Shown in pieces: positions 25,261 to 51,139 of a stretch of DNA of 64,000 nt. This stretch comes from Costus lasius (taxonomy: Eukaryota > Streptophyta > Magnoliopsida > Zingiberales > Costaceae): contig CM050451.1 of assembly GCA_027563935.2 (NCBI GenBank), positions 27,109,565-27,173,564 on the forward strand. The letters run 5' to 3'. The translations under genes and the position numbers were made by a program. The notes below the pieces were generated by a model. The model had not been told where the DNA came from. It made no database searches and saw nothing but the letters and a program-made list of their open reading frames with translations. Position 1 is the first letter of the stretch. Each line of letters begins with the position of its first letter.

Positions 25261-27849
25261 CCTCTTGGTATGGAAGGGATGGGATAGGATATGCATTAAG
25301 CATATAACATAACATAATGCATGATATGGATGGGATTGCATAGGATGAAATGAATGATATGGATGATATAGGCTATGCCATTATATGAGAGGTTTAAAAT
25401 ACCAGTCCGAATCGGTGTACCGGTTATCAGAACGGTTTGCTATAATGAAATTGACTCTGTGACATGACTATGCCATATACTATGCCATATCCTATGCTAT
25501 GTCATAACCATGCCTTATGCCTCATACTATGTGCTATGCAATAGTCATGCCTATATGAAATAGGATTTGACCATGTCACAAGGCATGAGACATGATATGA
25601 CATAGTGCATAGGACATAGTATGATTAGGGTATGATATAAGGTATGCATGACCTTGACAAGGCATGGGGTATTCGGCATGATGATATGATATTTAGGACA
25701 ACCATGACATAACAAAGTATGACATTAGGCATAGGGCATAACATGACTTAGAGCATGATATGATCATAGCCTATAAGAAGCATGAGGCATAATATAAGGC
25801 ATGTCATGCTATAACTTACATGGGGTATGGAGTATAAGGCATGACATGGTTATGGCATGGCGGCATGGCAGCATGGCCATATCACATGTCATGCCCCGTG
25901 CCATGACTATGCCTTATGCCATGCCTCATTGCATACCTAACACTATAGGGGATGACTATGGTGTACACTAGGGGATGACTATGGCATGCGGACATACAAC
26001 ATGGCTATGACATAGGGCATGAGGCATGATATGACATGATATGAGTCATGAGGGATAGCATGGGGTATGGTATGACATAGCCTAGATAGAGCATGAGCAT
26101 AACATAAGGTATGACATAGCAAAGTATGACATTAGGCATGGGGCATAACATGACTTAGAGCATGATATGATCATAGCCTACAAGAAGCATCAGACATAAT
26201 ATAAGACATGTAATGCTATGGCTTACATGGGGCATGGGGTATAACGCATGACATGGTTATGACATGGTAGCATGATAGCATGGCCATATCACATGTCATG
26301 CCCTGTGCCATGACTATGCCTTATGCCATGCCTAACACCATAGGGGATGACTATAGTGTACCCTAGGGGATGACTATGGCACGAGGACATACAACATGGC
26401 TATGACATAGGGCATGGGGCATGACATGACATGCAACATGGCATGATATGGGTCATGAGGGATAACATAGGGTATAGTATGACATAGCCTTGATAGGGTA
26501 TGAGCATGACATAAGGTATGACATGTCATGACCTATATACATAGGGCATAAGAGACAATGGAGTATTCTATACTATGACCATATATGATAGAAATTGTAT
26601 GGGGGATGGACATTACATGACCTATATATGGAATGAGATGGGCCATGGGATGAGATGTGATGGGGGGTATGTATTGCCATGACATCATGGAGGGCATGAC
26701 ATGTGCATAGGGCATTATGTGACATTGTATGGGAGCATGGAGCATGACATAATATTTAGATATCATGCCCTATGACATACTATTCCATGCCATGATATGA
26801 TGCAGCATATTATGCCCCATGCCTTAGCTAGGCATGGTCTTGGTCTTGGTATGATGTGGCCATGCCCCCTACGACATTGTATGAGGATATATGAGGCATG
26901 GGTCATGACATGGTATTGCATTGCATGGGCATAAGCATGACAGGATACAATGCCATGCCCCATGGCTATGCCCTATATTATGCCATGATTGTGCCCTATG
27001 GAATAACCATGCCTATGCCTTGTCCATGCGCCATAAGGGAACAACATGACTTAATATGCGACATTATATGGTATGACATGATGGGGTATGAGGCATAGTA
27101 TAACATAGCTTGACAAGTCACATATAGAGCATGACATGATGGCCATGGATGGCAAGGCATGACATACTATAGCCTACATAGTAATAGATCATAGTGCATT
27201 GCATGGGGATGTCATGCTATGGGCCTTATGCTATGCCATGACTATGCCCCTTGTCATGACCATGCTTCATGTCTTGCCCGCTATATCCATGCACCATGGG
27301 GCATGACCATGGATGAAGCATGAGACAGCATGAGACATAGTATGACATACGATCTGGCTTTGCATTCAGTATTGCATGGGATGGCTTGGCGTTGCAGGAT
27401 CATAGCATAGGACATGACTATACACATAGACATGACATGGTATGGGCATAGGGCATTGTATGACCATGGCATAACATGGTATGCGGTATGACCATGGGAC
27501 AAGGGACATAGGGCATGTCATGTAGTATGGCTATAGCAATGTCCTATGTCATGCCATGGAAGGCATGCCCCATACCATGCCTATGCTCTGTAGGGCATGA
27601 TCATGACATGAGGTATGAGACAGACATGGCATGAGCAGGTTATGACATGAGGCATGACATGACCCTGACAAGACATAGGGTGTGGGGCATGATATGGTGT
27701 TAGGATAACCATGGCATGATAAGGTATGACATCAGGTATGGACATGACATAGAGCATGGTACATAGTCTCCAAGGAGCATAGGGCATGACCAATTATGGT
27801 TTACATGGGGCATGGGCATAAGACATTGCATGGTCATGGCATGGCATGC
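25261..27849. repeat. CATG-word degenerate satellite, left block with 407 bp higher-order unit
   Basis: About 2.6 kb consists almost wholly of 6-10 bp words such as catgacat, ggcatgac, gcataagg and tatgccatg, with CATG every few bases. Two long units are collinear: one starts at 25714 and the next at 26121 with 'aaagtatgacattaggcat', a 407 bp period. Diverged further copies are visible near 27655-27840 and again after the Athila insertions near 52770-53000. G-rich and C-rich (tatgccttatgcc) stretches alternate, so the words occur in both orientations. Around 25392-25450 it is interrupted by unrelated DNA. The open frames here are spurious. Confidence 0.8.
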
Positions 27850-29281
27850 TGATAGCCGGTAAATTAGCCGTTCCGCAAGTATACGGACTATCGAAGTAAT
27901 ATATATGTATCGATCCCACAGGGACCAAATACCAAGTACCGACTGATTAGATTACCACAAGCTAGACGATCTTTAAGTGGTTGTGAAATGGTCGCTAAGA
28001 TCTAAAATTAAGCTAAACAAGAGATAAGCAAGGCAAATAGAATTGAAAGCTAGGTAATCGCACGATGCAAGGTCTAAGGATGGGTAGGATCAAGGCTAGG
28101 GTCCACCGCCTTGATGCGCTATGCGTGGATTGATAACAATATGAAAGTCCCCTTTTAAATCTTAGGGCGATCCAAAGGTGTGCAAGTCGTCCTCTCTCGA
28201 GTGATGCAACTTGCGACTAGGAGCTTTACCCGATTTAGCGTCTACCGTCGTAGGACGCAAGATCGCATAAACTCATTGAGTGCCGGATCGTACATACCAT
28301 CCCATCATTTGTATATGTTATCCCCTCTTGGGTGATGCAACAAGGTATTTGTACGGTTCGACGCCTACCCTCGTAGTATGCCTACCCGAACAAACCCAAT
28401 GAGCACAAAACGGCATACACTACCCGTACCTAATCAACCACTCTCGTGCGATGATTGAGGTACCCTCGCCTAGGCTATCAAATATCTAGATGTGCCTCTC
28501 GGCAATACCAGATATCTAAGACATGAAGAAAGAAACAAAGTAATCTTCATTCAAGGGGTGCAACTAAGCAAGGTAAGACAATCTAGGGTTTGCAAAATAT
28601 CATCATAATCCACACATAGAACAGTCAAGGGGTTTTCCTAAGCCCTGAAACAAGGTTTAAGCTACACAAACCATAATGCAAAGCCAAGCATACAAGTCTC
28701 CCAATACATCATCCATGAATAAGCAAGTAGAGAAAGGTAAATGAGAAGAGGAGGATAGGACTCCTCAAGGAGGAAGGATCCGCTCGAAGCTTCTAGGTCT
28801 CTCACCGCAAAAGCTCTCCTCCCCGTTCCGATTAAGCGCCGGTTCCGATTCCTTGCTCAGCCGCCGCTCCTCCCTTACGTATCCGCTTTTACGAATCAAT
28901 CCCCCCTATTCCTTACGTGAATAGGGTTTTTGTCCTCTTCCTCTGTTCTCTTTGTCGAATTCCACTTCTGCCCCTCTTTAGCCTTCCATCTGACGTGGAT
29001 AAGTCGAGGGTTGAAACCTGGAAAAATCGGCGTTTGGCGACTCAGAAGTCATGGGGCATGATTCCGGTCGCTGGGTGGGCCGTGGTTTTAGCTGTGAATA
29101 CAGGTTTGGCTGAAAATAGTGGCATTCCCTCACTTTTCCCCTGAAATGAAGCAAAAACACCAAAGAGTGTAGATTCCATAGATATTGCAATAATTCCATA
29201 TAAAGCAGGTGTAAATGCCAAAATAGTGATGAAATAACAATGGAAATAGCGTATAAATTCCTATATAAAAACCACTTAACA
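27850..29281 (-). repeat. 3' LTR of Athila element 1
   Basis: On the minus strand it starts TGTTAAGTGG next to the polypurine tract and ends GGCTATCA at the CATGC target duplication. A TTTTTATATAGG motif near its start is a TATA-box candidate. It matches 36492-37924 nearly base for base. Confidence 0.92.
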
Positions 29282-29300
29282 AATTTCCCCAGACTTAAAC
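29282..29300 (-). other. Polypurine tract of Athila element 1
   Basis: On the minus strand AAGTCTGGGGAAATT directly precedes the LTR start TGTTAAG. Slightly upstream lies CTTGGGGACAAGCAAGAG, a motif typical of the Athila/Tat lineage. The equivalent region is deleted from element 2. Confidence 0.7.
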
Positions 29301-30313
29301 TCTTGCTTGTCCCCAAGCAAAGATAAAATGAAGCTAAGCTGTAATGAGGATCCTTATGGCCTGAGTTCAACCCCTCCAAGATAGTGCTAACACTGATCCA
29401 TGTAATGAACAAACACCCTACAAGTGGTAGACTCCTATCGGATATCAAAGTGGTAAGCATTGCAATCCAAAGAAAATGCGTTCCACACATAGCTACTACA
29501 CCTCATAATCAACCTCCTAGTTTCTCCTCTTAGAATTTTTGAAGCCTCCAAGTGGAAGTGGAAAGGAAATATCAAAATCTTTCTACAAGTGGAATGAAGA
29601 CATACATATGTTTGGAGAATTTGGAGAGGATCTTTGTCTTCTTTTTTTTTAGAGGATCTTTGTCCTCTTTTTTTTTTTTTTGCAAAATGTCTCTAGACTT
29701 TGCTAGAGAATCTTTTCTTGTTTTGACCTTTGTTTGTTTTTTTTTTGTGGTAACCAAAATGAAGGGTATGATAGATGAGGAGGAACTATTCAGTATCAAA
29801 CTCAGTGTAGAAAACTAGCGGCATCCCACAATTTTAAATGGAAGCTCAACTTACCAAGAATCAACCGTTAGTTATCTACCATGAGGGGAATACTCGCATG
29901 TACTGAATCTATGCTAGCAGAATCGGTAAGGGGAAGAATCATGCATAAGGGTCACACTAACAGTAAAGAACATCTTAGGAACATGCTCAAAGACAAGCGA
30001 GTTATATTATCTAGAACTAGGGGAGACAGTTTAGCAATTGATAAAAACAACATTAATGTACACCAATTAGAGAGAGTTGAATATGCATATGGAGCTTAAC
30101 TTACCAAGGTCAACAAGATGGTAAATGGTAAAACCGAAGTCAACAAAAATGAGCACCAAATGGTAAAAGTGCATGAAGCTAGTAATATCGAAAATGCACA
30201 AGTATAATGCACAAATACCCCCCACCCACATGGGAAAAGAGGCATCGTCCCCGATGCCAAAATAGAAAGGCAGTAAAGGGTACAAAAATGGGGGGTGCAG
30301 AGGGCTCTCAGAA
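29301..30313 (-). other. 3' non-coding region of Athila element 1
   Basis: This stretch between the env-like stop and the polypurine tract contains T-rich runs (about 29640-29745) and no conserved coding frame. The matching region of element 2 is partly deleted. Confidence 0.5.
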
Positions 30314-31851
30314 CTAATCGCGGGGATCATCCCCCGCGGCATTGAGCTCGTCCGAGGAGTCATCAGAGGAAGATGTATCAGATGTAGCCGAGGGGTCATC
30401 ATGAGCTGGATGGTGCTGGTAAGGGGCATTGCTCCGGAAACCAGGTAAGCGAGACCGAAGGAAAGCATAAATATTGTCAATCTGGGTGCCTTGGGTCCGG
30501 AGTTGTTGCAAGATTGACTGCAGGAGTTCATGAGCTGAGGGCTCATGGGGAGCTCTTGGTGCTGGTCCAGCCATGAAGGGAGCAGGGGCATTCCTGGAGT
30601 GAGCCGGATCATCAGCAGCTGCAGCGGTGAGGTTCCAGTTCTCCCGATGACGAACAGAGGTACGCGCTGTGTTGGGCAGTGGTATAGTCTGAAGACTCCC
30701 TCGAGGAGTGAAATGATAGATGTCGCCGCGCCTGGAGATCATCTTCATGGCAATGCAGGCCTCCATATCGAGCCGTCGGCTCCCGCTGGCTTCCGCAGTC
30801 CCATAAGGGTTATGCCCTAAGTGCAGCGCGAGTGGAGTAAGCAGACCACCGATTGCAATGGTTCCCTTGGTGACTCGCCCGACCTGTGTCAAGTGTTTGG
30901 CAAGGTAGTAGCCAGAGTTGAGAGGAAATTGGTGAAGCATACTCCATAAGAACATCAGCTCCACATGCTGCAGCATGCAATCACTATCGGCGCGCGCGAA
31001 AATAGTGTGGGCTAGCAGGCGGTGCGCGTAGCGGAGGCAGGGATTGGAGATTGCACTCGCGCGTGTATTCTTGGAGGAGTAGTGATCGTCGGAGCAGATG
31101 GATTTCCAGAAAGCATCCTCCCAGTGCCTCGTTGGTTGGTGAAGCTCGACGTCAGCGGGGAAGCCATAGACGGCATTGAATTCTTCAAGAGGTAGACGGC
31201 ATTCAGTGTTGTTCATCCGGAAGCAGATCGAGAATGTCTTGTTGTCGTGGCCCGAGCGGCAGGTTGAGAAAGAACTTAGTACTTCCAAGGTGAGGCCGAG
31301 ATGTGTGGGAGAGGCCTGATTCAAAAATTTCTCCCACCCGAGGTTCCGGAATAACCATAGCACATCATCGAGAAGTCCTAGATGCAATAGGGTGGGGGAA
31401 TCCATGTAATGAGTGTTAATCATGCGCCGATTGGAGAGGGCGAAATACCTGGCTTCTTGAGTGGCGTCACGAAAATGAAGAACGTGCCCTTCGGTTGAAG
31501 GGAAAAGGTGGGGTGATGTGGCGGAGGTGGAGTCGAAGATCGAGCAGGCTGCTTCCCCTTGCGACGCCGGCGATATGTGGAAGTGGAGGGTGCGGGGGCG
31601 CTAGGAGCAGTCAGCTCGGGTGCAGGTGGAGCTGGAGTAGGAGAAGGAGGGATCGGAGCTGGAGCTGGAGATTTCCCTGCTCCGTGCAGACGAGAGGATG
31701 TGGAGGCGGGTGTAGAGGCATCAGAAGGGGCTTGCGTGGAAGCGGAGGCTCGCGCCGGGTCAGGGGAGACTGGGCCAGGGGTTGAAGTTGATGCTCGGCG
31801 CGGGCGTTTAGGGAGGTAGGAGGGGCGCACGCACGCCTTACGGGGTCCCAT
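30314..31851 (-). pseudogene. Athila env-like (ORF3) gene with one frameshift
   Basis: The start MGPRKACVRPSYLPKRPRRA opens a Ser/Pro/Ala-rich N-terminal half. A single-base indel near 31495-31512 shifts to the frame holding MDSPTLLHLGLLDDVLWLF, EEFNAVYGFPADVELHQPT, KGTIAIGGLLTPLALHLGHN and an acidic tail ending DDPRD. Element 2 reads through the same junction in one frame, which confirms the frameshift. This ORF occupies the env-like position of Athila elements (after pol, before the 3' LTR). I see no clear signal peptide or fusion region, so an envelope function is not supported. Its role is unknown. Confidence 0.7.
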
Positions 31852-33439
31852 GGAGACAGGGGAAGAATGAGAGCTCCGGCGGGGAGGTCTGGTGAAAGGA
31901 ACGGGGAGGCAACGAGAAAAGAGGCGAGAGTCAGGTTAGGGTTTCTCGGGGCGAGGGATAGGGCGAAGCGGTGAAATGAAAGGCGCGGGCATATGAAGGG
32001 TTTTAAGAAGCCAGGACATTTGAAGTTAAGTTAACTGAGAGGGGCCCCACCGAAAGTCTCGGGACGAGGTTGTGGTCATTGGGCGCCCCAAGGAACTCTC
32101 TGTTCAAAACTGGGACAAATACGCTTTGCGCGGCAGAAACTGTCTTCGGAACTCTCGGGCGAGGTCTTGGTCACCGGGTGCCCTGAGGAACATTCTGTGA
32201 AAATCGCTACTTTAAACTTAGAGAGTCGCCTGCAATGGTCTGAAATTCCGCGGACCAAGGTTTTAATCATTGGGCGGCCCGAGGAACTTTCTGTGGAGAA
32301 CAGAACTCTTAACTTGGAATGCAGCTTGTGCGAACCACGGGTGTGGCAGTAATTGCTGGGTCGATCGTGGAATTCTGAAAAGAATGCAAATAGCTTCCAA
32401 CTGCACCCAGATCATCCCTGAACAATCACAAACACGTAATTAGGTTTCATAAAGCCATCGAAATAGAGTAAAACCTAATACTACCACAAAGCTATCTCAA
32501 TGTCACTTGTGTGCAACACTAAATGTAAGAATCATGGAATATATCACCCAAAACTTCAGCAAAGGGAATCCAGAGCTCAACAAACTACATGAAAAGAATA
32601 GAAGCAGGCAATTGGCAACAACTCGATGACGTAGAAAAGGCGAGCATGGGACCGAGGTACGAGAAGAAAAATGAGGAGAAAAAACGCAAAGCCAACAAAC
32701 CACTTAGAGGGGGCAAGGGCTGGACGAGTGATCAAAAGTTCATCAAAGAATCAGCAATTCACCATCTCAACTCAGCAAATGAAATCAGCAAGCGAAAATA
32801 CCACGGTGTTTGCTACAGGGAAGGCTAGCTAAATAGAAATACCGCTAAGCAAAACATCAAAATGGAGGAAAACGAAGCGAGCGGTCAATAAATCAAAATA
32901 CAATCACAACACCATCTCAGCAATACCATCAAGCGTAAGCCCCCACAAACTTTATCAAAGTAAAATCATAGCTCACTAGGTTACATAGAAAGAACAACAA
33001 CTGGTAAGGGACAAATATCAACAGGATACCAACCCACACCTCCTAAGTACCACAGAAGTAAATAGTGAGCAGCAACACTACTAAGTAGATTACCAAAGAG
33101 ATGAATAAGGTAAGCACACAGCTGGTAGCCTACATAGAGAGAGTGAAACTAAGCAAATGGTTTATAAAGCCAAATATCTGCTCAATACCAATTCAGCGTA
33201 GCAAATGAAAGTAGCAAGCATAAATACCATGGTATTTTCTAAAGGGAGGATTAGCAAAGTTACAGCAAGCAAACTTACATAAAAAGGAATACAAGCAAGC
33301 AAACCGTTAACAAAATCGTGGTAGAGTGGAATCAAGCAGGTGATCGGTAGATCAAAACTCATTGCAGCAAAGCGAATCAAATTACCATTACCCTAACTAC
33401 CAAAAACTGAAAATACCATGAAGCAAATTACTAAAAGAA
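31852..33439 (-). other. Spacer between pol remnant and env-like ORF, with tandem repeats
   Basis: About 1.6 kb without a conserved frame. At 32040-32340 imperfect ~100 bp repeats carry 'gggcg.ccc.gaggaact.tctgt' words, also found at 41860-42260 in element 2. The remainder is rich in 'cagcaa' and 'taccaa' words with weak internal repetition. Confidence 0.55.
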
Positions 33440-33584
33440 CTAGCAAGAAAAGGGAAAAAGAGCTTGGGTTGCCTCCCAAGAAGCGCCATTTTAAGGTCTT
33501 TGGCTTGACCATGACGTCATGTCACGGTGGATCCGGGGGATTGGAAAGATGAACAGTGTTCGGCTCCTCAAGTGGTTCATATGC
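33440..33584 (-). pseudogene. Integrase C-terminal tail remnant
   Basis: EPLEEPNTVHLSNPPDPP, then a stop, then LKMALLGRQPK match the C-terminus of the element 2 integrase frame (EPLEAPSTVHLSNPPPP, DLKMALLGRQPK). This is all that remains of pol downstream of protease. It marks the right-hand breakpoint of the pol replacement. Confidence 0.75.
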
Positions 33585-34343
33585 CCATGGGGCACATGAT
33601 GATCTGCCTATAGTCTTCTCGGACCCGGTACAAGGTAAACCTCTCGTACCAACGGTAAACAGCGAATCGAGTATATTTGAATCGATCTTAAAACCCATCG
33701 GGAGCTTAATATAGTGCTGTGAGAGCATCAAAAGGAATTCTTTGGAGTATTTCCTTTGATTAGCAGTTCTTGAACAACTATCATCATGATGCATAGCTGC
33801 TCCAATGTCATGCTATCCATTATGTGATATCTTTAATATCGGAGTTGAGACACCTGTCGCATCTCCCCAATCATCTGGAATGATATCCTTAACCTTGATT
33901 GGACTGTTCACATCAAAATTTTCATGGCTGACCTCTGAAAAGTTAGCAGCATCGGCTGTGGAGAATAGTTTCTTAACATTCTCCTCTTGAGATGTACTCA
34001 TAAGCTTATTCCAAATTTCCATTGAGGGCTCCTCTTTCTTTCCTAAGTCGGTTGCGGTAACCAATCCATCCATAAAAGCAATCGATCTAATACCCTGACT
34101 GGGTGCTAATTCACACCTGACAATTACACTTGAGGAAGGAGGATCATTGAGAGCATTATGTCTAGGATCGGCCAAGCCTAAAGATACATTGTTCTGCCCA
34201 TTTACAACGGCATTATCTTCTTGCGCTTCATGAGTGGCAATATAGTTGGATTCACTAAGAACTTTGTTGTTATCTTTATGGCATTGGCTAGATTTCGCTT
34301 CTCCACATATCTCTATTCTCTTATCTTGCTCCAAAACAACTGA
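33585..34343 (-). pseudogene. eIF4G-like host gene fragment captured in Athila element 1
   Basis: About 253 codons, in frame with the upstream protease and interrupted by one stop (33813-33815), have no counterpart in element 2. Landmarks in order are MEIWNKLMSTSQEENVKKLF, STADAANFSEV, IIPDDWGDATGVSTPILK, MHHDDSCSRTANQRKYSKEF and LLMLSQHYIKLPMGFKID. This resembles the part of plant translation initiation factor eIF4G just before the MIF4G domain: a '..SKADAA..' segment, the 'DDWEDAADVSTP' motif, then the eIF4E-binding motif Y-x4-L-hydrophobic (here YSKEFLL) and 'LP.GF.I'. The cap-binding contact residues Tyr and Leu-Leu are kept. The MIF4G domain is absent. Identification is from family knowledge, not a search. 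Confidence 0.72.
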
Positions 34344-36339
34344 GTTGGCCCACTCATCCTCCACAACGCCCATGCTACAGTAAGTCCTTGCAACGTAGGA
34401 GCACTTTGGACTTCTAGAGATTTCAAAATAGATAGCATCTCCACTGATATTCAGTTTGAGCCTCCCATTCCTAACATCAATTATGGCACCAGCGGTTGCC
34501 AAGAAGGGTCGGCCAAGGATTATGGGACATTGGGCATCTTCTTCCATGTCCAAAATAATAAAGTTTTCCAGAATAGAGAATTCACCAACTCTGACCGGTA
34601 TATCTTTCAGTACGCCTACCGGGCGCCGTATCGAGCGGTCAGCAAGTCACAACGCAATGTTTGTCTCTTTTAGTTCCCCCATATCTATCTTTTTGCAGAT
34701 TGACAACGATATAAGACTCACGCTGGCTCCGAGGTCACACAGGGCGCGATCAAAGCTAACGTTCCCAATCTGGCATGGTATTGAGAAACTTCCAGGGTCA
34801 TTCTCCTTGTCCAAACACATGTCTGACTCATCTAGTGGACCTTCTACACACGTATTGATAGCGTTGCATTGTTCTCTAGGGTTGGCCTCAGATTGTCCCG
34901 GAAGTCTCCCGGGAGGTCTAGGTGATGTCAAGGCCTGCTGTGCAACTTGGTTTTCCAGCGTCTTCCCATGCATGGTTAAGGCTTCAACTTGGGAAGCTAG
35001 CTGCTGAGTAGTTTCATTCATGTGCTCACTCCGTTTAGCTTGCCTCTGGATGGTCTCATTCATGTGTTCGCTCTATTTAGCTTGGCTAGCCATAAAATTT
35101 TCAAGCAAGGATTCCAAACTTGACCTTGCAGGTTGGTGTGGTGATGGAGGTTGTTGCTGGAAGCCTACTTGTTGTCTATACTCGGGTTGTTGTGCCGCAT
35201 TGTTGTTGCGGTATGAGAAATTCGGGTGGCTCTTCCACCCAGGATTATACGTATTGGAGTACGGGTCATGTTGTGGTCTTGGTTGGAAACTATTAAGAGC
35301 ATTAACTTGATCCGGTGTAGAGTCCCCAAAAGAGGGAGGTCCCATTTGGTACTCGGCCACAGGTTGGTTCGGCGTACCACCATTCTCCCAACATACACTA
35401 TTAACTGATGTAGTGGTGGAGTTCAGCCCCCATGTATCAAACTTGTGAGCCAACGAATCAACCTTGGCTGCTATTGAAGTCAAGGTACCCAATTCAAATT
35501 TACCACTGGTTTTAGGTGTCCCTCCCCTTTCAGTTGACCACTGTTGGTGGTTCATCGCCATACTTACTATTAGATTGAAGGCTTCACCAATTTCTTTGCC
35601 CATCAATGCACCATCGGCTGTTGCATCAATGGTAAGTCTGGTATTGTAGTTGAGACGATTGTAGAAAGTGTGGATGAGAAACCATTTCTCCATACCATGG
35701 TGAGGGCACAGCATTTGATATTCCTTGAAGGGATCCCACTCTTCACATAGTGACTCGTTGTCTCTTTGAGCAAAGTTAATGATTTGAGTTCTCAATTGGG
35801 CCGTCTTGCTTGACGAAAAATACTTAGATAGGAAAGCAGCAGAAAGCTGCCCCCCATGTCGAGATAAATCCAGAGGACAATGAATGCAGCCAGGCACGGG
35901 CACGGTCCCGCAATGAGAATGGAAATAACCTCAACCGTATCGCGTCATCTGATACTCCATTCATCTTCAGCGTATCACAAACTTCAAGAAAGATTGATAG
36001 ATGTAGATTCGGATCCTCAAGTGGCGAACCTCCGAATTGATGTTGGGTCACCATGTTCACAAGAGTTGGCTTGATTTCAAAATTATTTGCCTCAATCGGA
36101 GGTCGAGTGATGCTGGTATGTAGCCCTTGTGCACTAGATGAAGCAAAGTTTCTAAGTGTTCGGCGGTCATCCATCTCGAGCTGTTCTAGAGATTCCTTGG
36201 ACTGAGTTGCCTTGGACTTAGCTTTTCTACGGCGTCGGAATGTCTTCTCAATTTCAGGATCTGCTGGTATTAATTCTCCAGACCGTATAGTCCTACGCAT
36301 AAACCAAGTAAGTTCAAAAGCAACTTTTCCAAGTAACAA
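34344..36339 (-). pseudogene. gag: Athila element 1 gag-protease, frameshifted
   Basis: Gag starts MLLGKVAFELTWFMRRT and carries the Athila-type core RPPIEANNFEIKPTLVNMV, QFGGSPLEDPNLHLSIFLE and DAIRLRLFPFSLRDRARAWL. An extra base in a C6 run (35850-35855) shifts the frame. Gag resumes with FLSKYFSSSKTAQLR and continues through a Gln/Asn/Pro-rich tail. Stops interrupt at 35070-35072 and 34644-34646. The protease follows, with CDLGASVSLISLSICKK (active-site DLGAS) and PIILGRPFLATAGAIIDV. Compared with element 2, about 130 codons between gag and protease are deleted. After the protease the frame runs into the eIF4G-like insert. Confidence 0.82.
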
Positions 36340-36468
36340 AAAGATATGCAGTGATTATCAAATATATAGAAAAGCTTAACACTAAATAACTAAAAGTAAG
36401 TAAACTAAAAGAAAGAAAAAGGTCTAGTCTAGCAATAACTTAACCGTGTCGATATTAATAAATTTGGT

Positions 36469-36485
36469 CCCTGGCAACGGCGCCA
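36469..36485 (-). other. Primer-binding site of Athila element 1, tRNA-Asp type
   Basis: On the minus strand TGGCGCCGTTGCCAGGG lies a few bases after the LTR end. It is complementary to the 3' end of plant tRNA-Asp(GTC) with one mismatch. This primer choice is typical of the Athila/Tat branch of Ty3 elements. Confidence 0.8.
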
Positions 36486-36491
36486 AAAACT

Positions 36492-37924
36492 TGATAGCCG
36501 GTAAATTAGCCATTCCGCAAGTATACGGACTATCGAAGTAATATATATGTATCGATCCCACAGGGACCAAATACCAAGTACCGACTGATTAGATTACCAC
36601 AAGCTAGACGATCTTTAAGTGGTTGTGAAATGGTCGCTAAGATCTAAAATTAAGCTAAACAAGAGATAAGCAAGGCAAATAGAATTGAAAGCTAGGTAAT
36701 CGCACGATGCAAGGTCTAAGGATGGTTAGGATCAAGGCTAGGGTCCACCGCCTTGATGCGCTATGCGTGGATTGATAACAATATGAAAGTCCCCTTTTAA
36801 ATCTTAGGGCGATCCAAAGGTGTGCAAGTCGTCCTCTCTCGAGTGATGCAACTTGCGACTAGGAGCTTTACCCGATTTAGCGTCTACCGTCATAGGACGC
36901 AAGATCGCATAAACTCATTGAGTGCCGGATCGTACATACCATCCCATCATTTGTACATGTTGTCCCCTCTCGGGCGATACAACAAGGTATTTGTACGGTT
37001 GGACGCCTACCCTCGTAGTATGCCTACCTGAACAAACCCAATGAGCACAAAATGGCATACACTACCCGTACCTAATCAACCACTCTCGTGCGATGATTGA
37101 GGTACCCTCGCCTAGGCTATCAAATATCTAGATGTGCCTCTCGGCAATACCGGATATCTAAGACATGAAGAAAGCAACAAAGTAATCTTCATTCAAGGGG
37201 TGCAACTAAGCAAGGTAAGACAATCTAGGGTTTACAAAATATCATCATAATCCACACATAGAACAGTCAAGGGGTTTTCCCAAGCCCTGAAATAAGGCTT
37301 AAGCTACACAAACCATAATGCAAAGCCAAGCATACAAGTCTCCCAATACATCATCCATGAATAAGCAAGTAGAGCAAGGTAAATGAGAAGAGGAGGATAG
37401 GACTCCCTCAAGGCGGAAGGATCCGCTCGAAGCTTCTAGGGCTCTCGCCGCAAAAGCTCTCCTCCCCGTTCCGATTAAGCGTCGGTTCCGGTTCCTTGCT
37501 CAGTCGCCGCTCCTCCCTTACGTATCCGCTTTTAAGAATCAATCCCCCCTATTCCTTACGTGAATAGGGTTTTTTTCCTCTTCCTCTATTCTCTTTGTCG
37601 AATTCCACTTTTGCCCCTCTTTAGCCTTCCATTTGACGTGGATAAGTCGAGGGTTGAAACCTGGAAAAATCGGCGTCTGGCGACTCAGAAGTCACGGGGC
37701 GTGATTCCGGTCGCTGGGTGGGCCGTGGTTTAAGCTGTGAATACAGGTTTGGCTGAAAATAGTGGCATTCCTTCGTTTTTCCCCTAAAATGAAGCAAAAA
37801 CACCAAAGAGTGTAGATTCCATAGATATTGCAATAATTCCATATAAAGCAGGTGTAAATGCCAAAATAGTGATGAAATAACAATGGAAATAGCGTATAAA
37901 TTCCTATATAAAAACCACTTAACA
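36492..37924 (-). repeat. 5' LTR of Athila element 1
   Basis: 1433 bp, collinear with the 3' LTR. Differences seen by eye are mostly transitions, with a few single-base indels. That indicates a moderately recent insertion, older than the zero-divergence class. Confidence 0.92.
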
Positions 37925-38241
37925 CATGCCCTATGCTATGACTTTACCTTATGCCATGACTATGACTTTACCTTATGCCGTAACTATATCTTATGCCATG
38001 ACTTTGACTTTACCTTATGCTGTAACTATACCTTATGCCATGCCCTTTGTCATGTTTATGCCTTATACCTTATGCTATGACTATATCTTACGCCTTATGG
38101 CATGTCCTATGACATTACATGAGAGCATGGGGCATGACTATGCCTTATTCCTATGTTGTTGCATACTATGCCCCTTGGCTAGGCTCATGCCTGTTGCATA
38201 ATGTGTTATGTTTTATGCCCTAGTATATGCCCCATGTTATA
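37925..38241. repeat. CATG-word satellite, 317 bp block between the two Athila elements
   Basis: The same vocabulary as the flanking blocks, but mostly in the C-rich orientation (tatgccttatgccatgac). It starts with the CATGC target copy of element 1 and ends with the TTATA copy of element 2, so both elements lie in one original array. Confidence 0.8.
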
Positions 38242-39628
38242 TGATAGGTGAATTCCGCAAGTATACGGACTATCGAAGTAATAAATATGTATCGATCCCA
38301 CAGGGACCAAATACCAAGTACCGACTAATTAGATTACCTCAAGCTAGATGATCCTTAATTGGGTGTGAAATGGTTGCTAAGATCTAAAATTAAACTAAAC
38401 AAGAAATAAGCTAAGCAAATAGAATTGAAAGCTAGGTAATTGCACGATGCAAGGTCTCAGGATGGGTAGGATCAAGGCTAGGGTCCACCGCCTTGATGCG
38501 CTATGCGTGGATTGATAACAATATGAAAGTCCCTTTTTAAACTTAGGGTGATCCAAAGGTGCGCAAAGTCGTCCTCTCTCGAGTGATGCGACTTGCGACT
38601 AGGAGTTTACCAGATTTAGCGTCTACCGTCGTAGGACGCGAAACCGAATGAGCTCATTGAGGGCCGGATCGTGCATACCATTCCATCATTTGTACATGTT
38701 GTCCTCTCTCGAGTGATGCAACAAGGTGCTTATACGATCAAACGTCTACCGTCGTAGTACGCTTAACCTGTATAAACCCAAAGAGTGCCAAATGGTGTAC
38801 ACTACCTGTACTCAATCGACCACTCTCGTGCGACGATTGAGATACTCCTGCCTAGGGTTTACAACATCTGGACGTACCTCTCGACCCTACCAGATATCTA
38901 AGAGCATGAAATTAACACAATGTAAAACTTCATTCAATAGGTGCAACTAGGCATGATAAGACAATCTAGGGTTCACAATATAAAGCTATAATCCACACAT
39001 AGAACATTCAAGGGGCTTTCCCTACCCCTGAAACAAATTTAAGTTACAATATCCATGTTCCAAAGCAAAGCATCATTCAATCCAGTCAATACATCCATGG
39101 TTAACAATGAGGCGATCAAATAGATGGGAGATAGGAAAACAAGACTCCCTCAAGAAGGAAGAAGCCGCCTAAGAAGCCTTCTTTTGCCTCCGATTGGTCG
39201 TCCGCCTCCTTCACGCTCCCACATTGAAGGATTTTCCTCTTTCCTTCGCTGCTCAGCCGTCGCCCTCCTCCTTACGTGCGTGCGTGAACCTTTTTTCAAT
39301 CCCCCCGTTCTCTTTACGTGAATAGGGTTTTGTCCCTTTCCTCTCCTCTCCTTGTCGAATTCCACTTTTTCCCTCCTGGAGCCCTCTGTCTGATGTGGAT
39401 AAGTTGAGGGGTGAAGATCTGGAAAATCGGTATAAGGCGACACCAAAGCCATGGGGTATGGTTTTGGTCACTGGGTGGACCGTGGTTTTCACCGAGAATA
39501 CAGATTTCGCTGAAAATGGTGGCATTCCCTCGCTTTTTCACTGAAATGATGCAAAAACACCAAAGAGTGTAGATTCCGAAGATAAAGCAATAATTCCATG
39601 CAAATAAGGTGTAAATGCTAGAAAGTAA
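38242..39628 (-). repeat. 3' LTR of Athila element 2, truncated at its inner end
   Basis: It matches 51140-52577 up to 'gctagaaa.gtaaag' near 39628, then jumps to sequence equivalent to about 29776 of element 1 ('aggaac.attcagtatc'). The deletion therefore removed about 60 bp of LTR plus the polypurine tract and nearby non-coding DNA. Confidence 0.82.
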
Positions 39629-40180
39629 AGGGGGAGGAAGAACCATTCAGTATCGAATTGGGTGTAGACAACTAGCGGCATCCCACCATTTAAGTAGGAG
39701 CTCAACTTACCAACTCAATCTTTTAGTTATCTACCATGAGGGAATAAATCACATGTACTAGATCTATGCAGACAAAATCCATAAAGGGGCAGAATAGTGC
39801 AAATGGATCATACCAAATAGCAAAGGACACATAAAAGCATGCTTAAAGGCAAGCAAGAACGTACTTTAAAGTTCTAGAGTCAGGGGGGAGACAGTCATCT
39901 AACTATTAAGGCAATAATAAATAACAAGGCCACAGTCAGGAGTATCAAAAGTTAAAACTTTCAATAATAAGGACTCAATGCAAACCAAAACAAACCAAAT
40001 TCAAAAGTTAAAATTGAAACTTTCGACGACAAATGGATCATATCAAAATAAATACAGACTAAACTATGCAAACCAAACCACCAAACCCCCACCCGCATGG
40101 TAAAATAGGCATTGTCTCTGATGCCAAAATAGAAGAATAGTGAGGCATACAAAAAATGGGTGAGTGCAAGTACTCACAAA

Positions 40181-41689
40181 CTAGTCTTCGGGGTCATCCC
40201 CTGCGTCGCTAAGATCATCATCAGAAGAAGCATCAGAAGGAGAGGAAGAGGTGTCATCATGAGCGGGATGGCGCTGGTAGGGGGCAGTACTCCTGAAGCC
40301 AGGGAAACGAGAATGGAGAAATACATATATGCCCTTCATGTTCGCTGTCAGTGTGTCAAGTTGGGTCCCCTGAGTCTGGAGTTGCTCAAGTATCGAATTG
40401 AGAAGGTCGTGTGTGGTTGGCTGAGTAGGAGCTCTGGGTGCTGGGCCGGCGACGAAGGGAGCAGGAACTGCTGAGGAGGTGCTAGGAGCATCTGCGGCAT
40501 CAGGTCTGATATTCCAGTTCTCGCGGGATCTAATGGTTGTCCGCACGGTGTTGGGGAGCGGGATCGTGTGAAGGCCGTCCCAGAGTAGTAGATGGTACAC
40601 GTCGCAGCGCCTTGAGATCAATTTCATGGCGATACAGGCTTCCATATCTATCCGTCGGCTCCCTTTGGCTTCTGGGGTCCCGTAGGGGTTGTGCCCTAAG
40701 TGCAGCGCCAGCGGAGTCAGCAGACCTCCGATCGCAATGGTTCCCTTGGTGACCCGCCCGACGTGCTCCAGGTGCTTAGCCAAGTAATATCCAGAATTGA
40801 GGGGAAACTAGTGGAGCATACTCCACAAGAAGATCAGCTCCACATGTCGCAGCATACAGTCGCTGTCTTCGTGCGCGAAAAGGGTATGAGCGAGCAGACG
40901 ATGCGCGTAGCACAGGCAGGGATTTGAAATGGTGCTGGCGCGTGTATTCTTGGAGGAGTAATGATCTTCGGAGGAGAGGGATTTCCAGAAAGCATCCTCC
41001 TAGTGACCCGTTGGTTTGTGAAGCTCGACGTCAGTGGGGAAACCATAGACGGCATTGAATTCTTCAAGGGGAAGATGATACTCAGTGTTGTTCATCCGGA
41101 AGCAGATCAAGAATATCTCGTTGTCGCGTCCTGAGCGGCATGTTGAGAAAGAACTTAGTACTTCTAGGGTGAGGCTGAGATGTGTGGGAGAGGGCTGATT
41201 CAAAAATTTCTCCCACCCGAGGTTCCGGAATAACCACAACACATGGTCAAGAAGCCCTAGATGAAGCAGAGTTGGCGAGTCCATACAACAGGTATTAACG
41301 ATGCATCGCTGCGAGAGGGAAAAATACCTGGCTTCTTGGGTGGCGTCACGAAAATGAAGCACATGCCCTTCGGTGGAGGGGTGAAAGTCAGGGTGATGCG
41401 GAGGAGGTGGGGACGGGGAATGGGCGGGTTCTTTCCCCGCTTGACGCCGGCGTTGAGTGGATGAGGGTTCAGGAGCGGGAGGAGGTGCCGGCGTGGGAGC
41501 AGGAGGAGTCGGAGATGGAGTGGGCGCTCTCCTGAGTCTGCTCGGGCGAGTTGATGTGGCGGTGGGCGTAGGCACACCTGAAGGGGTTCGTGCCGGATCA
41601 AGGGAAGCTGGGCCAGGGGATGTTGGTGATGCTTGGTGCGAGCGCTTAGGTAGGTAGGAGGGGCACACGCATACTTTGCGAGGTCCCAT
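40181..41689 (-). pseudogene. Athila env-like (ORF3) gene with two stops
   Basis: It starts MGPRKVCVCPSYLPKRSHQA and, after a Pro/Ser-rich region, carries MDSPTLLHLGLLDHVLWLF, EEFNAVYGFPTDVELHKPT, KGTIAIGGLLTPLALHLGHN and the acidic tail DDLSDAGDDPED. In-frame stops follow '..KPTGH' (at 41000) and '..WSMLH' (near 40808). The same positions in element 1 encode Trp and Gln, so both stops are single transitions. It is homologous over its length to 30314-31851. The function is unknown; it is env-like by position only. Confidence 0.72.
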
Positions 41690-43409
41690 TGAGCTCAGGC
41701 GAGGTCTCGAAGAAGAGTGGGGTGGCAGAACCGAGGGGTCAGCGAAAGAGGCGAAGGCGAACTAGGGTTTTCACGAGGTGAGGAAATGGGGCGAAGCGGT
41801 GAAGCGAAGGGCGCGGGCGTATGAAGGGTTTAAGCAGCTAGGACTTTTGAAGTTAAGTGAGAGGCCCCACCAAAAGTCTTAGGGCGAGGTTGTGGTCGCT
41901 GGGCGCCCCGAGGAACTCTCTGTTCAAAACTGGGACAAATACACTTTGCGCGGCAGAAACTGTCTCCGGAACTCTCGGGCGAGGTCTTGGTTACTGGGTG
42001 CCCCGAGGAACTTTCTGTGAAAAACTTGGACTTCATATATCCCACTGTGAAATCTGTCCTCAGAAACCACGGCCGAGGTTGCGATCACTGGGTGCCCCGA
42101 GGAACATTCTGTGGAGAACTGAACTTGAACTGAAAAGTTGCCTCCAAGGGTCTAAAATTCCACGGCCGAGGTTTTAATCATTGGGCGGCCCGAGGAACTT
42201 TCTGTGGAGAACGGAACTCTTAACTTGGAATGCAGCTTGTGCGAACCACGGGTGTGGCAGTAATCGCTAGGTCGATCATGGAATTCTGAAAATAATGCAA
42301 ATAGCTTCCAATTGCACCCAGATCGTCCCTGGAAAATGACAAACGTATAATTAGGCCCCACAAGGTTATCAAAATAGAGTAGAACCTAATGCTATCACAA
42401 AACTATCTCAACATCATTTGTGGACAACGCAAAGTGTAAAATTCAAAGAACGAATCACCCAAAACTTCAGCAAACTACATGAAGAGAATAGAAATTAGCA
42501 ATCGGCAACAGCTCATCATGGAGAAAAGGATGGACATGAGATCTAGAAATTAAAACGCCAAACAATTTAACTCAATCAAAAGAGAGGTGAAGCAATAAGT
42601 GACTAATAGCATGAGAATTCCACCACACATTACCTTAGATAGCAGGATAAATGTAAGCAGTAAGTGGTAATATCGCTACGTGAGTTACTAGAAAGATGAG
42701 CAGAATGAACACAAAGCCGGTAAACCACTTAGAGAGATCAAAAACTGGGCAAGTGATCAAAAGTTCCGCAGGAAAACAGCAAACCACCGTTGCAACACAG
42801 AGAATGAAATCAGTAAGCGAAAATACCATGGCATTTGCTACAGGGAAGACTAGCGAGGTAGGCACATACTCAAGTAACAACCAAAATAACAGCGCAATAC
42901 CATCCTGATACTATCAAGCCATACTACCAAGTGCAAGCTACTACAAACATCGGAAAAATAAAAGGATAGCTCACTAAGCTACTTGGAGAGAACAAAAGCT
43001 AGTAAGTGACAAATATCATCAAGATGTCGTCCGACACCTCCTAAACACCACAGACGTAAACAGTGCACAGCAACTCCACTAAATAGGCTACCAAATAGAT
43101 GAGAAAGGTAAGTACACAGCTGGTAGACTACAATGAGAAAATGGAAGTGGAGCAAATGATAAACAACATCAAAATACCAGCTCAATACCAACCTAGCACA
43201 ACAATTGAAAACAAAAAGTGGTGGAACCATGGAGTAAACTACCAAAGTGATTATCAAGTTAGGTACTCATCTGAGTGAAGTACTTAAAAAGAGTGAAAGT
43301 GTGCAGGCAAGTGGTTGATAGATCAAAACACATCATGGCAAAGCAAACTAGATCACCATTAAGCTAACTACCAAAAGTGAAAATACCATTAACTAAACAG
43401 CTGAATGAA
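41690..43409 (-). other. Spacer of element 2 with tandem repeats at 41860-42260
   Basis: Four imperfect units carry 'ggcgaggt.t.g.tca.tgggtgccccgaggaac..tctgtg' at intervals of about 85-130 bp. Similar units occur in element 1 at 32040-32340. The rest is A-rich, with short 'ctaccaa' and 'agcaaac' repeats and no conserved frame. Confidence 0.6.
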
Positions 43410-44879
43410 TTAGCAAGAAAAGGGAAAAAGGGGCTTGGGTTGCCTCCCAAGAAGCGCCATTTTAAGGTCTTTGGCTTGACCATGACGCCATGTCAAGGTG
43501 GATCGGGGGGGGGGGGGGGGGGGGGGGGGGTTGGAAAGATGAACAGTGCTCGGCGCCTCAAGCGGCTCATGTGCGAAATAGTGCTTTAAGCGCTGACCAT
43601 TCACAGTAAAAGTCCTAGATTCCCTATCATTGATCTCAATTGCTCCAAAAGGGTGAACTTTCTTGACGGTAAAAGGGCCAGACCATCGTGTTTTGAGCTT
43701 GCCCGGGAATAGCCTAAGCCTAGAGTTGAATAGGAGTACTCGGTCCCCTTCTTTGAAGTCTCTTCTCAAGATTTTCTGATCATGCCATTTCTTCGTGCAC
43801 TCCTTATAAATGCGGGCGTTGTCATAGGCACTCAATCGTATTTCATCGAGCTCATCAAGTTGTAATGGACGTTTCTCACCAGCAGATTTGAAGTTAAAGT
43901 TAAGCGCCCAGATAGCCCAAAATGCCTTATGTTCTAATTCAACCGGTAGATGCCACGATTTACCGTATATCAGCTAGTATGGGGACATCCCAATAGGCAT
44001 TTTGAATGCGGTACGGTACGCCCAAAGAGCATCCTCCAATTTTATTGACCAATCTGTTCATGCTCTAGATACTGTTTTCTCCAGGATTTTCTTTAGCTCA
44101 CAGTTTGATATCTCGACTTGACCACTGGTTTGCAGGTGGTACGGCGTGGCAACCTTGTGGGCAACTCCATATTTCCTTAGAAGTGTTGCAAATTGTTGCT
44201 CAATAAAATGCGAGCCCCCATCACTAATGACCACTCGCGGCACTCCAAACCGCGGGAATATTATCTTCTTGAATAAACGCATGACAACTTGAGAGTCGTT
44301 AGTGGGGGATGCCATCGCCTCTACCCACTTCGATCCATAATCCACTGCCACTAAGATATATTTGTGCCCAGATGAGGAGGGGAATGGTCCCATAAAGTCA
44401 ACTCCCCAAACATCAAAAATTTCCACTTCCAAAATGTTGTTCAAAGGCATCTCGTTTCTCCTTGATATGTTATCGGAACGTTGGCACTGGTCGCAAGCCT
44501 GAACAAATCTTCTGGCATCCCGAAATAGTGTTGGCCAATAGAACCCACTTTGGAGAACCTTGAAAGCAGTCTTGGATGTGCTACAATGCTCCCCATATGC
44601 AGATCCATGGCAGTGAAATAGGACATCCCGGTATTCATCTTCAGGTAAGCACCGCCAGAAGACTCCATTAGCACATCTCTTGAAAAGAAAAGGTTCATCC
44701 CAATAGTAATGTCGAACATCAGAAAGGAACTTCTTCCTTTGCTGATAAGTGAGTTCAGGAGGCAAAACGTTAGCGGCTAAGAAGTTCACGAAGTCTGCAT
44801 ACCAAGGCATTTCAATACTGGAGAGCGCCATAAGTTTCTCATCGGGGAAAAAGTCATTGATACTTGATTCTTGTTCCAA
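43410..44879 (-). pseudogene. Athila element 2 integrase, decayed
   Basis: The HHCC-type zinc-binding region includes [12 protein letters not shown] and [10 protein letters not shown]. The catalytic D-D-E is seen as [16 protein letters not shown] and [17 protein letters not shown]. After stops at 44058-44060 and near 43974 comes the C-terminal part with KEGDRVLLFNSRLRLFPGKL, KTRWSGPFTVKKV and FTVNGQRLKHYF. No chromodomain follows. A 26-base G run (43505-43530) encodes extra prolines near the end. Integrase would insert element cDNA into chromosomes, but this copy cannot be made intact. Confidence 0.85.
43505..43530. repeat. 26-base poly-G tract in the integrase C-terminus
   Basis: An uninterrupted G run (C run on the coding strand) follows GATC. 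The equivalent site in element 1 (near 33536) has only five G. It expands a proline codon run in the frame. Confidence 0.85.
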
Positions 44880-45452
44880 TTCGTTTTCTTGCTCATGGGT
44901 GATACGTGAGAGATGATCGGCAACTGAGTTCTCGGCCCCCTTCTTATCTCGAACTTCTATGTCGAATTCTTGGAGTAGTAAAATCCATCTTATCAGTCAC
45001 GGTTTGGCATCTTTCTTTGTCATCAAGTACCTAATAGCTGCATGATCGGTAAAAACAATAACTTTAGAATAAACAATGTAAGACTGAAACTTGTCAAATA
45101 CAAAAACCACAGCCAATAGCTCTTTCTCGGTGGTCGCGTAATTGATCTGCGCGTCATCCAGCGTGCGGCTCGCGTAGTAAATTGCATGCAACTGGTTCTC
45201 CTTTCGTTGTCCTAGTACCGCACCCACGGCGTAGTCACTCGCGTCACACATGATCTCAAATGGGAGGGACCAATCTAGCGGTTGCATTATCGGTGCTGAA
45301 ATCAAGGCTTCCTTCAACGTGGTAAAAGCTTGCAAGCAGTCCCTATCAAAAATAAAAGGCACATCCTTAGCAAGAAGACATGTCAATGGTCTAGCTATTT
45401 TTGAAAAATCTTTTATAAAGCACCGGTAAAAATCGGCATGACCCAAAAAGCT
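44880..45452 (-). pseudogene. Athila element 2 RNase H region
   Basis: GHADFYRCFIKDFSKIARPL, the connection region, leads into the RNase H domain with FEIMCDASDYAVGAVLGQR (first catalytic Asp), YASRTLDDAQINYATTEKEL (Glu) and VIVFTDHAAIRYL (Asp). Stops occur at 45450-45452 and 44994-44996, both TGA where CGA (Arg) is expected, followed by the usual [12 protein letters not shown]. It would degrade the RNA template after cDNA synthesis. Confidence 0.83.
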
Positions 45453-46790: not shown

Positions 46791-47961
46791 ATCAGTATGT
46801 CTTCCAATATGCCCACAGGGTGTCGTACCGAGTGGTCGGCGAGTTGCAAAGAGATATTTGTCCGCTTGAGTTCCCCCATATCCAACTTCTTGCAGATAGA
46901 GAGCGGTATAAGACTGACACTGGCCCCAAGATCACATAAAGCGTGATCAAAACTCATGTCCCCAATCTGGCATGGGATCGAAAAACTGCCGGGGTCTTTT
47001 AGCTTAGGTGGCAGTTTGTTTTGAATTATGGCGGTACACTCTTCCGTCAGCGCCACTGTTCCTTGGTCTTCCAATTTTCGCTTGTTGGACAATATTTCCT
47101 TGAGAAACTTGGCATAAGATGGCATCTGCGCAAGGGCATCAGTGAAGGGGATATTGATATATAATTTCTTGAGTACTTCTAAGAATTTACCAAATTGGCG
47201 ATCGAGCTTCGGCTTTGCCAATCTTTGCGAAAAAGGAATAGCTGGCACATAAGGGGGCGGGGGTATGTATGCCGGTTCCTTATTCTTTTCTCGTTCAGCA
47301 TCAGACCCTTCCACACCATCCCCTTCCTTTCTCACAATTTTTGGTTCGGCACCCTTTTCTATGTCTAACTGTACCCTAGGCTCGTCTAGTTGCTTCCCAC
47401 TATGGGTGATGATAGCGTTACATTGTTCTCTAGGATTAGCCTCAGGTTGTCCTGGAAGTCTACTAGAAGGTCTAGGTGACGTCAAGGCTTGCTGCGCGAT
47501 CTGATTTTCAAGCATCCTTCCATGTGTGGTCAAAGCTTCAACTTGAGAAGCTAATTGTTGGATGGTCTCGTTCATGCGCTCATTTTGTTTGGATACTTGT
47601 TCAATTTGCTTGGTTTGGTTAGCCATAAAACCTTCAAGCATAGACTCCAAATTTGATTTCGGTGGTTGAGGTGGTGGTTGTTGTCTTTGTTGCTGGAACC
47701 CCACTTGTTGTCTATACTCGGGTTGTTGTGCCGCATTGTTGTTGCGGTATAAGAAATTCGGGTGGCTCTTCCACCCAGGATTATACGTATTGGAGTACGG
47801 GTTATGTTGTGGTCTTGGTTGGAAACTATTGAGAGCATTAACTTGATCCGGTGTAGAGTCCCCAAAAGAGGGAGGTCCCATTTGGTACTCGGCCACAGGT
47901 TGGCTCGGCGTACCACCATTCTCCCAACATACACTATTAACTGATGCAGTGGTGGAGTTCA
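46791..47961 (-). pseudogene. gag: Athila element 2 gag C-terminus and protease
   Basis: Continues gag after the nested solo LTR. It holds a Gln/Asn/Pro-rich linker (YNPGWKSHPNF, QQPEYRQQVGFQQQ), NETIQQLASQVEALTTHGRM, IPPPPYVPAIPFSQRLAKPK, KLYINIPFTDALAQMPSYAK and FLKEILSNKRKLED, then the protease CDLGASVSLIPLSICKKLDM with active site DLGAS. The frame shifts after VGILEDI near 46790. Element 1 lacks the PSYAKFLKEIL block. Confidence 0.83.
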
Positions 47962-50070: not shown

Positions 50071-50075
50071 GTTTA

Positions 50076-51133: not shown

Positions 51134-51139
51134 AAAACT

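What the first reader, a model, noticed from the sequence alone, without database searches (positions are those of the whole stretch)
33585..34343. Pol of an Athila retrotransposon replaced by an eIF4G-like fragment with an eIF4E-binding motif
Element 1 aligns with element 2 through protease (..VVEDE) and again at the integrase tail (..EPLE.P.TVHLSN), but the DNA between is unrelated to pol. It encodes landmarks I associate with plant eIF4G: DDWGDATGVSTP, then YSKEFLL (Y-x4-L-L) and LPMGFKID. The segment is on the sense strand and in frame with gag-protease, so the original element would have made a Gag-Pro-eIF4G-fragment fusion. A packaged protein that binds cap-binding eIF4E could favour translation of the element's own RNA or tie up a host factor. 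The function is speculation; the replacement itself is visible.
Basis: partly seen in the sequence, partly recalled or inferred. Interest (0 to 1): 0.88.

Follow-up and report, generated by a model that had tools for sequence, protein, structure and literature searches.

The report
Athila element carrying captured eIF4G piece
A plant Athila retrotransposon lacks its polymerase genes and carries in their place, in frame with its protease, a piece resembling the cap-complex protein eIF4G, likely captured from a host messenger RNA; the fused protein is predicted to bind eIF4E, which could bear on how the element uses the host's translation machinery.

Summary
Element 1 (minus strand, LTRs 27850-29281 and 36492-37924, GCATG target-site duplication) is an Athila-type LTR retrotransposon whose homology to the pol-bearing neighbour stops at 34352 and resumes at 33584. 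The neighbour has 2,975 nt of RT-RNaseH-integrase there; element 1 has 767 nt with no detectable relation to pol. That segment is in frame with protease and with the integrase tail, with one stop in 256 codons. Its later part (residues 158-233) matches plant eIF4G (melon, E 5.2e-9) and 9 of 12 residues of the published plant 4E-binding consensus. Residues 1-157 have no identified relative. No second copy and no parent gene were obtained; the own-genome search did not complete. Best reading: a non-autonomous, trans-mobilised element that likely captured eIF4G mRNA by template switching and would have made a Gag-Pro-eIF4G fusion. eIF4E binding is predicted, untested. Evidence for selection on the piece is weak. 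New variant of the known gene-transducing retrotransposon kind (maize Bs1).

The parts
27850..37924 (-). Element 1: Athila-type LTR retrotransposon, pol replaced
   Evidence: LTR pair, TSD, PBS-like and PPT-like sites, gag Pfam hit, ATHILA ORF Pfam hit
36492..37924 (-). 5' LTR of element 1, TG...CA ends
   Evidence: K2P 0.0264 to 3' LTR over 1432 sites, 28 transitions and 9 transversions
27850..29281 (-). 3' LTR of element 1
37925..37929 (.). Target-site duplication GCATG, 5' side
   Evidence: flank is CATG-rich, which weakens it
27845..27849 (.). Target-site duplication GCATG, 3' side
36468..36485 (-). Putative primer binding site (TGGCGCC...), 6 nt after the LTR end
   Evidence: sequence; a tRNA-Asp primer site 5 bp after the LTR is reported for the related Diaspora and Calypso (PMC1142308); match to tRNA-Asp here recalled, not tested
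29282..29294 (-). Polypurine-tract-like site before 3' LTR
   Evidence: by eye
35827..36339 (-). gag, first frame
   Evidence: PF03732 profile 1-29, E 0.0042, below curated cut-off
35076..35903 (-). gag, second frame, after a frameshift inside the gag domain
   Evidence: PF03732 profile 31-96, E 1.9e-11
34353..34814 (-). Protease region (DLGAS...ILGRPFLATAGAIIDV...VVEDE), one stop inside
   Evidence: 119 of the 120 listed hits align here with score >=150; 62 of 75 conserved columns kept
33585..34351 (-). Replacement segment, 767 nt, in frame with protease and integrase tail; one TAG at 33815-33813
33654..33881 (-). eIF4G-like part: DDW motif, Yx4LL 4E-binding motif, LPxxF
   Evidence: 5me5_B E 5.2e-9, query residues 158-233; consensus in PMC3352336
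33522..33584 (-). Integrase C-terminal tail and stop, same frame as the eIF4G-like part
30317..31423 (-). ATHILA ORF downstream of the pol position
   Evidence: PF03078 E 4.3e-21
38242..52577 (-). Element 2: pol-bearing Athila-type comparator, TSD TATAA
   Evidence: LTR pair, RVT_1, RNase H and rve Pfam hits
43575..46549 (-). Element 2 interval (RT, RNase H, integrase) missing from element 1

Best explanation
Element 1 is a pol-less Athila-type LTR retrotransposon in which a 767-nt segment, whose later part encodes a plant eIF4G-like eIF4E-binding region, sits in frame between protease and the integrase tail; the segment was likely captured from eIF4G mRNA by template switching during reverse transcription, and the element would have made a Gag-Pro-eIF4G fusion predicted to bind eIF4E. 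Shown: the swap, both in-frame junctions, the LTRs with a target-site duplication, and the eIF4G match of residues 158-233. Inferred: the template was mRNA; reverse transcriptase and integrase came in trans from an Athila relative such as element 2, which is 93% identical over the last ~420 nt of the LTR and the start of the primer-site region; the frame was open when this copy inserted (LTR divergence 2.6%, about 1 million years at a recalled rate of 1.3e-8). Most likely way of working, if it worked at all (about 0.15): Gag would bring the fusion to the element RNA, the eIF4G piece would bind cap-bound eIF4E, and because it has no detected MIF4G domain it would block eIF4G, so the RNA would leave translation and be packaged.
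For: eIF4G identity: 5me5_B E 5.2e-9, 9 of 12 residues of the published consensus with exact spacing. Replacement and frames. Integration as one unit: LTR pair, TG..CA ends, 5-bp TSD. Athila identity: PF03078 E 4.3e-21 and gag. Frame possibly open at insertion: 3 internal stops in the gag-pro-eIF4G-tail frame against 1.21 expected from LTR-measured decay, P(>=3)=0.12 (the one frameshift was not modelled). Capture probably older than this copy: 3 changes in 12 consensus codons against 0.36 expected after insertion, P=0.006, if the parent had the consensus. gag and pro between elements 1 and 2: omega 0.09-0.23 in the five in-frame, partly overlapping comparisons. Trans mobilisation is plausible: shared LTR end and primer-site region; a TR-GAG element transposes in Arabidopsis and a full relative may supply the proteins (PMC8704663, passages). 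Abnormal template switching is a described capture route in plants (PMC13317346, passages). [quoted passage not shown]
Against: One copy only; parent gene not in hand, so introns and mRNA origin untested. Residues 1-157 match nothing. The number of stops in the piece does not show selection: 3.03 expected at the rate implied by the motif changes, 1 seen, P(<=1)=0.195. The three motif changes being conservative is also unremarkable (product 0.09). Omega for gag and pro covers both lineages and may mostly reflect time before any capture; the short integrase tail gave 0.45 over 13 codons. [quoted passage not shown] for this I put the role at 0.15, not the 0.2 I had first. The AlphaFold model of the piece is low confidence (mean pLDDT 49; the helix at residues 16-34 over the motif lies in blocks of mean pLDDT 42 to 57).
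Confidence: 0.55

Rival explanations
1. Passenger: the eIF4G piece was captured by reverse transcription as above but never did anything for the element; the frame is open because it came from a coding sequence. (Shares the origin of the best explanation; rival to its functional step.)
For: No significant sign of selection on the piece. A high percentage of genes captured by rice LTR elements might have become pseudogenes (PMC3726574, passages). No second copy found.
Against: Frame kept at both junctions, 1 in 9 by chance; sense orientation adds little because transduced pieces usually lie in sense (PMC7264820, passages). 4E motif kept with its spacing although three consensus residues changed. 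In sorghum a higher share of captured genes is under purifying selection (PMC3726574).
Confidence: 0.55
2. Later patch: an ordinary Athila copy inserted here, then lost pol by a deletion that was repaired with eIF4G-derived filler DNA.
For: A single known copy cannot exclude it. Element 1 also lacks about 357 nt between gag and pro relative to element 2.
Against: Both junctions keep the frame. Motif changes exceed what 2.6% LTR divergence allows (P 0.006) if the parent had the consensus.
Confidence: 0.12
3. The piece came from genomic DNA, or from another mobile element carrying an eIF4G fragment (Helitron or Pack-MULE type), by recombination rather than from mRNA.
For: mRNA origin is untested; PMC13317346 names Pack-MULEs and Helitrons as carriers of gene pieces (passages).
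Against: The frame stays open over 767 nt but for one stop; a transposon insertion would be expected to add to pol, not replace it (inference). Transposon ends at the junctions were not searched for.
Confidence: 0.15
4. Not eIF4G: chance resemblance in diverged pol or unrelated sequence.
For: Residues 1-157 have no relative; two protein searches of 5.8 billion sequences with the segment gave no hit at E<=1.
Against: E 5.2e-9 and collinear motifs; 0 of 20,000 shuffles. The failed searches need exact shared 5-residue words, and by eye even melon eIF4G shares none with the motif region (alignment).
Confidence: 0.02

Closest known systems
Bs1 of maize (LTR retrotransposon with transduced plasma-membrane ATPase and other gene pieces)
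   Same: Host coding pieces carried inside an LTR element (PMC13317346, passages).
   Different: Different genes; here pol is replaced between protease and integrase tail, in frame at both ends, by one translation-factor piece. Details of Bs1 beyond one search are recalled; two of its papers were not held.
TR-GAG non-autonomous retrotransposons
   Same: Gag-coding, pol-less, LTR-bounded; a full relative may supply the missing proteins (PMC8704663, passages).
   Different: Element 1 also has a protease region and a host gene piece; no mobility shown.
Tpb1-1, a Diaspora-clade element of the Athila/Calypso group with an apparent retrogene
   Same: cDNA-like segment inside an element of the same lineage (PMC1142308, passages).
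   Different: There it lies between the pol stop codon and the LTR; the inserted gene was not identified.
gag-host-gene fusions of acutely transforming retroviruses (recalled)
   Same: Host coding piece replaces pol sequence and is fused to Gag.
   Different: Plant element; no effect on the host known.

Membership tests
Athila lineage of Ty3/gypsy | ATHILA ORF downstream of the pol position | tested here: met
   PF03078 E 4.3e-21
Athila lineage of Ty3/gypsy | gag and aspartic protease | tested here: met
   PF03732 E 1.9e-11; protease region aligned by 119 of 120 listed plant and metagenome proteins; none of them is named Athila in the listing
Athila lineage of Ty3/gypsy | tRNA-Asp primer binding site just after the LTR | tested here: inconclusive
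   TGGCGCC site 6 nt after LTR end; complementarity to tRNA-Asp recalled
Athila lineage of Ty3/gypsy | RT, RNase H and integrase core | tested here: not met
   absent from element 1, present in element 2; so element 1 is filed as a non-autonomous derivative, not as an autonomous Athila
LTR retrotransposon insertion | LTR pair, TG..CA ends, 5-bp target-site duplication | tested here: met
Gene-transducing LTR retrotransposon (Bs1 type) | host gene piece inside the element | tested here: met
Gene-transducing LTR retrotransposon (Bs1 type) | piece spliced relative to the parent gene | not testable with these tools
   no parent gene sequence available
Gene-transducing LTR retrotransposon (Bs1 type) | chimera propagated to more than one locus | tested here: inconclusive
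   none found; own-genome search unanswered
Plant eIF4G 4E-binding site | KKYSRDFLLx8LPxxF | tested here: met
   9 of 12 residues, spacing exact; three conservative differences
Plant eIFiso4G 4E-binding site | ERVRYTR(D/E)QLLZLRE | tested here: not met
   5 of 15 by eye against the consensus
Whole eIF4G | MIF4G and MA3 domains | tested here: not met
   no Pfam eIF4G domain in the segment at E<=1

The most novel reading that the evidence does not exclude
A family of plant retrotransposons traded its polymerase for eIF4G's cap-complex hook: Gag-Pro-eIF4G fusion proteins seize eIF4E on capped RNA and switch it from translation to packaging, while the enzymes are borrowed from full Athila elements.
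Probability: 0.12. Interest if true: 0.88.

Novelty: new variant of a known kind. Interest (0 to 1): 0.55.

Why it matters
How retroelement RNA is moved from translation to packaging is poorly understood in plants. An element that carries eIF4G's eIF4E-binding module fused to Gag-Pro would make that choice testable with a short peptide and a binding assay. Even as a passenger, it is a clear case of a host translation-factor piece replacing pol in frame in the Athila lineage. Seven paper searches aimed at such captures listed no paper whose title or abstract opening describes eIF4G capture by a retrotransposon; their lists were capped (for example 15 of 136 papers) and the library holds only open-licence papers.

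Tried and rejected
Protein search with the pro-eIF4G reading frame: 259 hits, the best 120 listed; those cover 14-47% of the query and 119 of 120 align to the protease region; the other 139 were not seen. Protein search with the segment alone: 279 candidates, none at E<=1. Padded search for full-length eIF4G: 102 candidates, none at E<=1; the tool needs exact shared words, so this says little. Viral and genome collections: 5, 1 and 38 stretches matched a pattern but none encodes a relative. Pfam on the segment: only a sub-threshold DUF4899 match (13.1 bits, cut-off 25), dismissed. The part after the stop, alone, also matched TRPA1 at E 0.67, dismissed as chance. Relaxed protease in element 1 as a sign of decay: not found, 62 of 75 against 65 of 75 conserved columns, p 0.51 (119 of the 120 listed proteins used, one dropped for score below 150; these were found with element 1 as query, which favours it). 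Conservative nature of the motif changes as evidence of selection: rejected, probability 0.09. Structure model: too weak to use. Printed grass eIF4G sequences in papers: one paper, consensus only, none.

In one search the integrase-tail comparison printed two rows and then stopped with an error; out-of-frame comparisons were also printed and are not used.

Full report
What was checked. The finding names 33585-34343 on the minus strand. Two LTR retrotransposons lie side by side on that strand. Element 1 has LTRs at 36492-37924 and 27850-29281 with TG..CA ends, K2P 0.0264 between them over 1432 sites, and GCATG on both sides; element 2 spans 38242-52577 with TATAA on both sides. The GCATG flank lies in CATG-rich sequence, which weakens that duplication as evidence. 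Element 1's downstream ORF matches Pfam ATHILA (PF03078, E 4.3e-21) and its gag matches PF03732. Element 2 carries RT, RNase H and integrase.

The replacement. Homology between the elements runs through protease to 34352, stops, and resumes at 33584 in the integrase tail. Element 2 has 2,975 nt between these points, element 1 has 767. Both lengths are 2 mod 3, so one reading frame runs from protease through the segment into the integrase tail and its stop at 33524-33522. The segment has one internal stop in this frame and 7 to 28 in the other five. It has no blastn match elsewhere in the window better than E 0.49, no tblastn match but itself, and tblastx against element 2's pol gives nothing below E 0.9.

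What the segment encodes. Read with X at its stop, it finds one Protein Data Bank sequence at E<=1: melon eIF4G, chain 5me5_B, E 5.2e-9, over residues 158-233 of 256, 31 of 71 aligned columns identical. A review of plant eIF4F gives the eIF4G 4E-binding consensus as KKYSRDFLLx8LPxxF (PMC3352336, passages). The segment keeps 9 of these 12 residues and the exact spacing; the three differences are K to R, R to K and D to E. It fits the eIFiso4G consensus in the same paper poorly (5 of 15 by eye). None of 20,000 shuffles of the segment has the motif with LPxxF at that spacing. Residues 1-157 have no match; I recall that plant eIF4G is poorly conserved there, but this was not tested. No MIF4G domain was detected.

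State of this copy. The gag-pro-eIF4G-tail frame has three internal stops (35075, 34649, 33815) and a frameshift inside the gag domain, whose profile match splits at positions 29 and 31. From LTR-measured decay 1.21 stops are expected, P(3 or more)=0.12; the frameshift was not modelled. So the data are compatible with a frame that was open when this copy inserted. Three changes in 12 consensus codons are more than insertion age allows (0.36 expected, P 0.006), provided the parent had the consensus; that suggests the capture is older than this insertion. The same logic does not prove selection: at the implied divergence a neutral segment would show 3.03 stops and has 1, P(<=1)=0.195.

Constraint on the rest. 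Between elements 1 and 2 five in-frame, partly overlapping gag and protease comparisons give omega 0.09 to 0.23; the integrase tail, 13 codons, gives 0.45. At 75 columns conserved in 119 other proteases, element 1 keeps 62 and element 2 keeps 65; 3 columns are kept only by element 1, 6 only by element 2, p 0.51. The protease of the pol-less element is thus not visibly more relaxed. Both measures cover time before any capture.

How it likely came about and moved. A pol-less element needs enzymes in trans. Elements 1 and 2 are 93% identical over 36463-36912, the last ~420 nt of the LTR and the start of the primer-site region, against 72-83% over the rest of the 5' LTR and 73-77% in protease, so an Athila relative could plausibly serve it. 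A TR-GAG element transposes in Arabidopsis (PMC8704663, passages). Abnormal template switching between co-packaged RNAs is a described capture route (PMC13317346, passages), and an element of the same lineage, Tpb1-1, carries an apparent retrogene (PMC1142308, passages). Capture from mRNA is inferred; without the parent gene, loss of introns cannot be shown. Frame kept at both junctions has a chance of 1 in 9; sense orientation is usual for transduced pieces (PMC7264820, passages) and adds little.

What it might do. The piece keeps the part of eIF4G that contacts eIF4E and lacks the part that recruits eIF4A. By analogy with 4E-binding proteins (recalled) it would compete with eIF4G. In a Gag-Pro fusion this would act on RNA held by Gag. 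[quoted passage not shown] The same passages say that capped transcripts serve translation and uncapped or decapped ones replication, which speaks against packaging through the cap unless decapping follows. I therefore keep a translation-to-packaging switch as the first functional reading but at about 0.15, well below the passenger reading at about 0.55.

Limits. One copy, species unknown, no parent gene, no second locus. Two protein searches with the segment found nothing at E<=1; of the 259 hits of the first search 120 were shown, and 119 of these align to the protease region. These searches need exact shared five-residue words. The own-genome search was sent nine times and never answered. 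Ten paper searches were made, seven of them aimed at captured genes; I judged by titles and abstract openings in capped lists and opened seven papers for passages only.

Verdict. It is a new variant of a known kind, gene-transducing pol-less LTR retrotransposons, made unusual by the host protein concerned and by the frame kept on both sides.

Noticed in passing
window 50345-50448 (+): Rfam snoR71 (RF00097, 45.6 bits) lies antisense inside element 2's gag; the snoRNA family may include retrotransposon sequence.
   Followed up: no
window 34802-34856 against element 2 at about 46999-47410: Element 1 lacks about 357 nt (119 codons) between gag and protease relative to element 2, also a multiple of three.
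   Followed up: partly
window 47962-50069: About 2.1 kb interrupts gag of element 2 relative to element 1; identity not determined.
   Followed up: no
window 27850-37924: Identity to element 2 is patchy: 92-98% over the LTR end and part of gag (35129-35425), 66-78% in protease and parts of the 3' region, suggesting mosaic ancestry.
   Followed up: partly
window 15667-16983 (-): ORFs with a CCHC-like zinc knuckle and gag-like sequence, probably another gypsy-type element (by eye).
   Followed up: no
window 60177-60671 (+): ORF rich in Pro/Tyr followed by an EF-hand-like stretch; looks like the first exon of a plant calcium-binding protein gene (by eye).
   Followed up: no
window 22243-22675: Tandem array with 29-bp and 10/19-bp spacing.
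   Followed up: no
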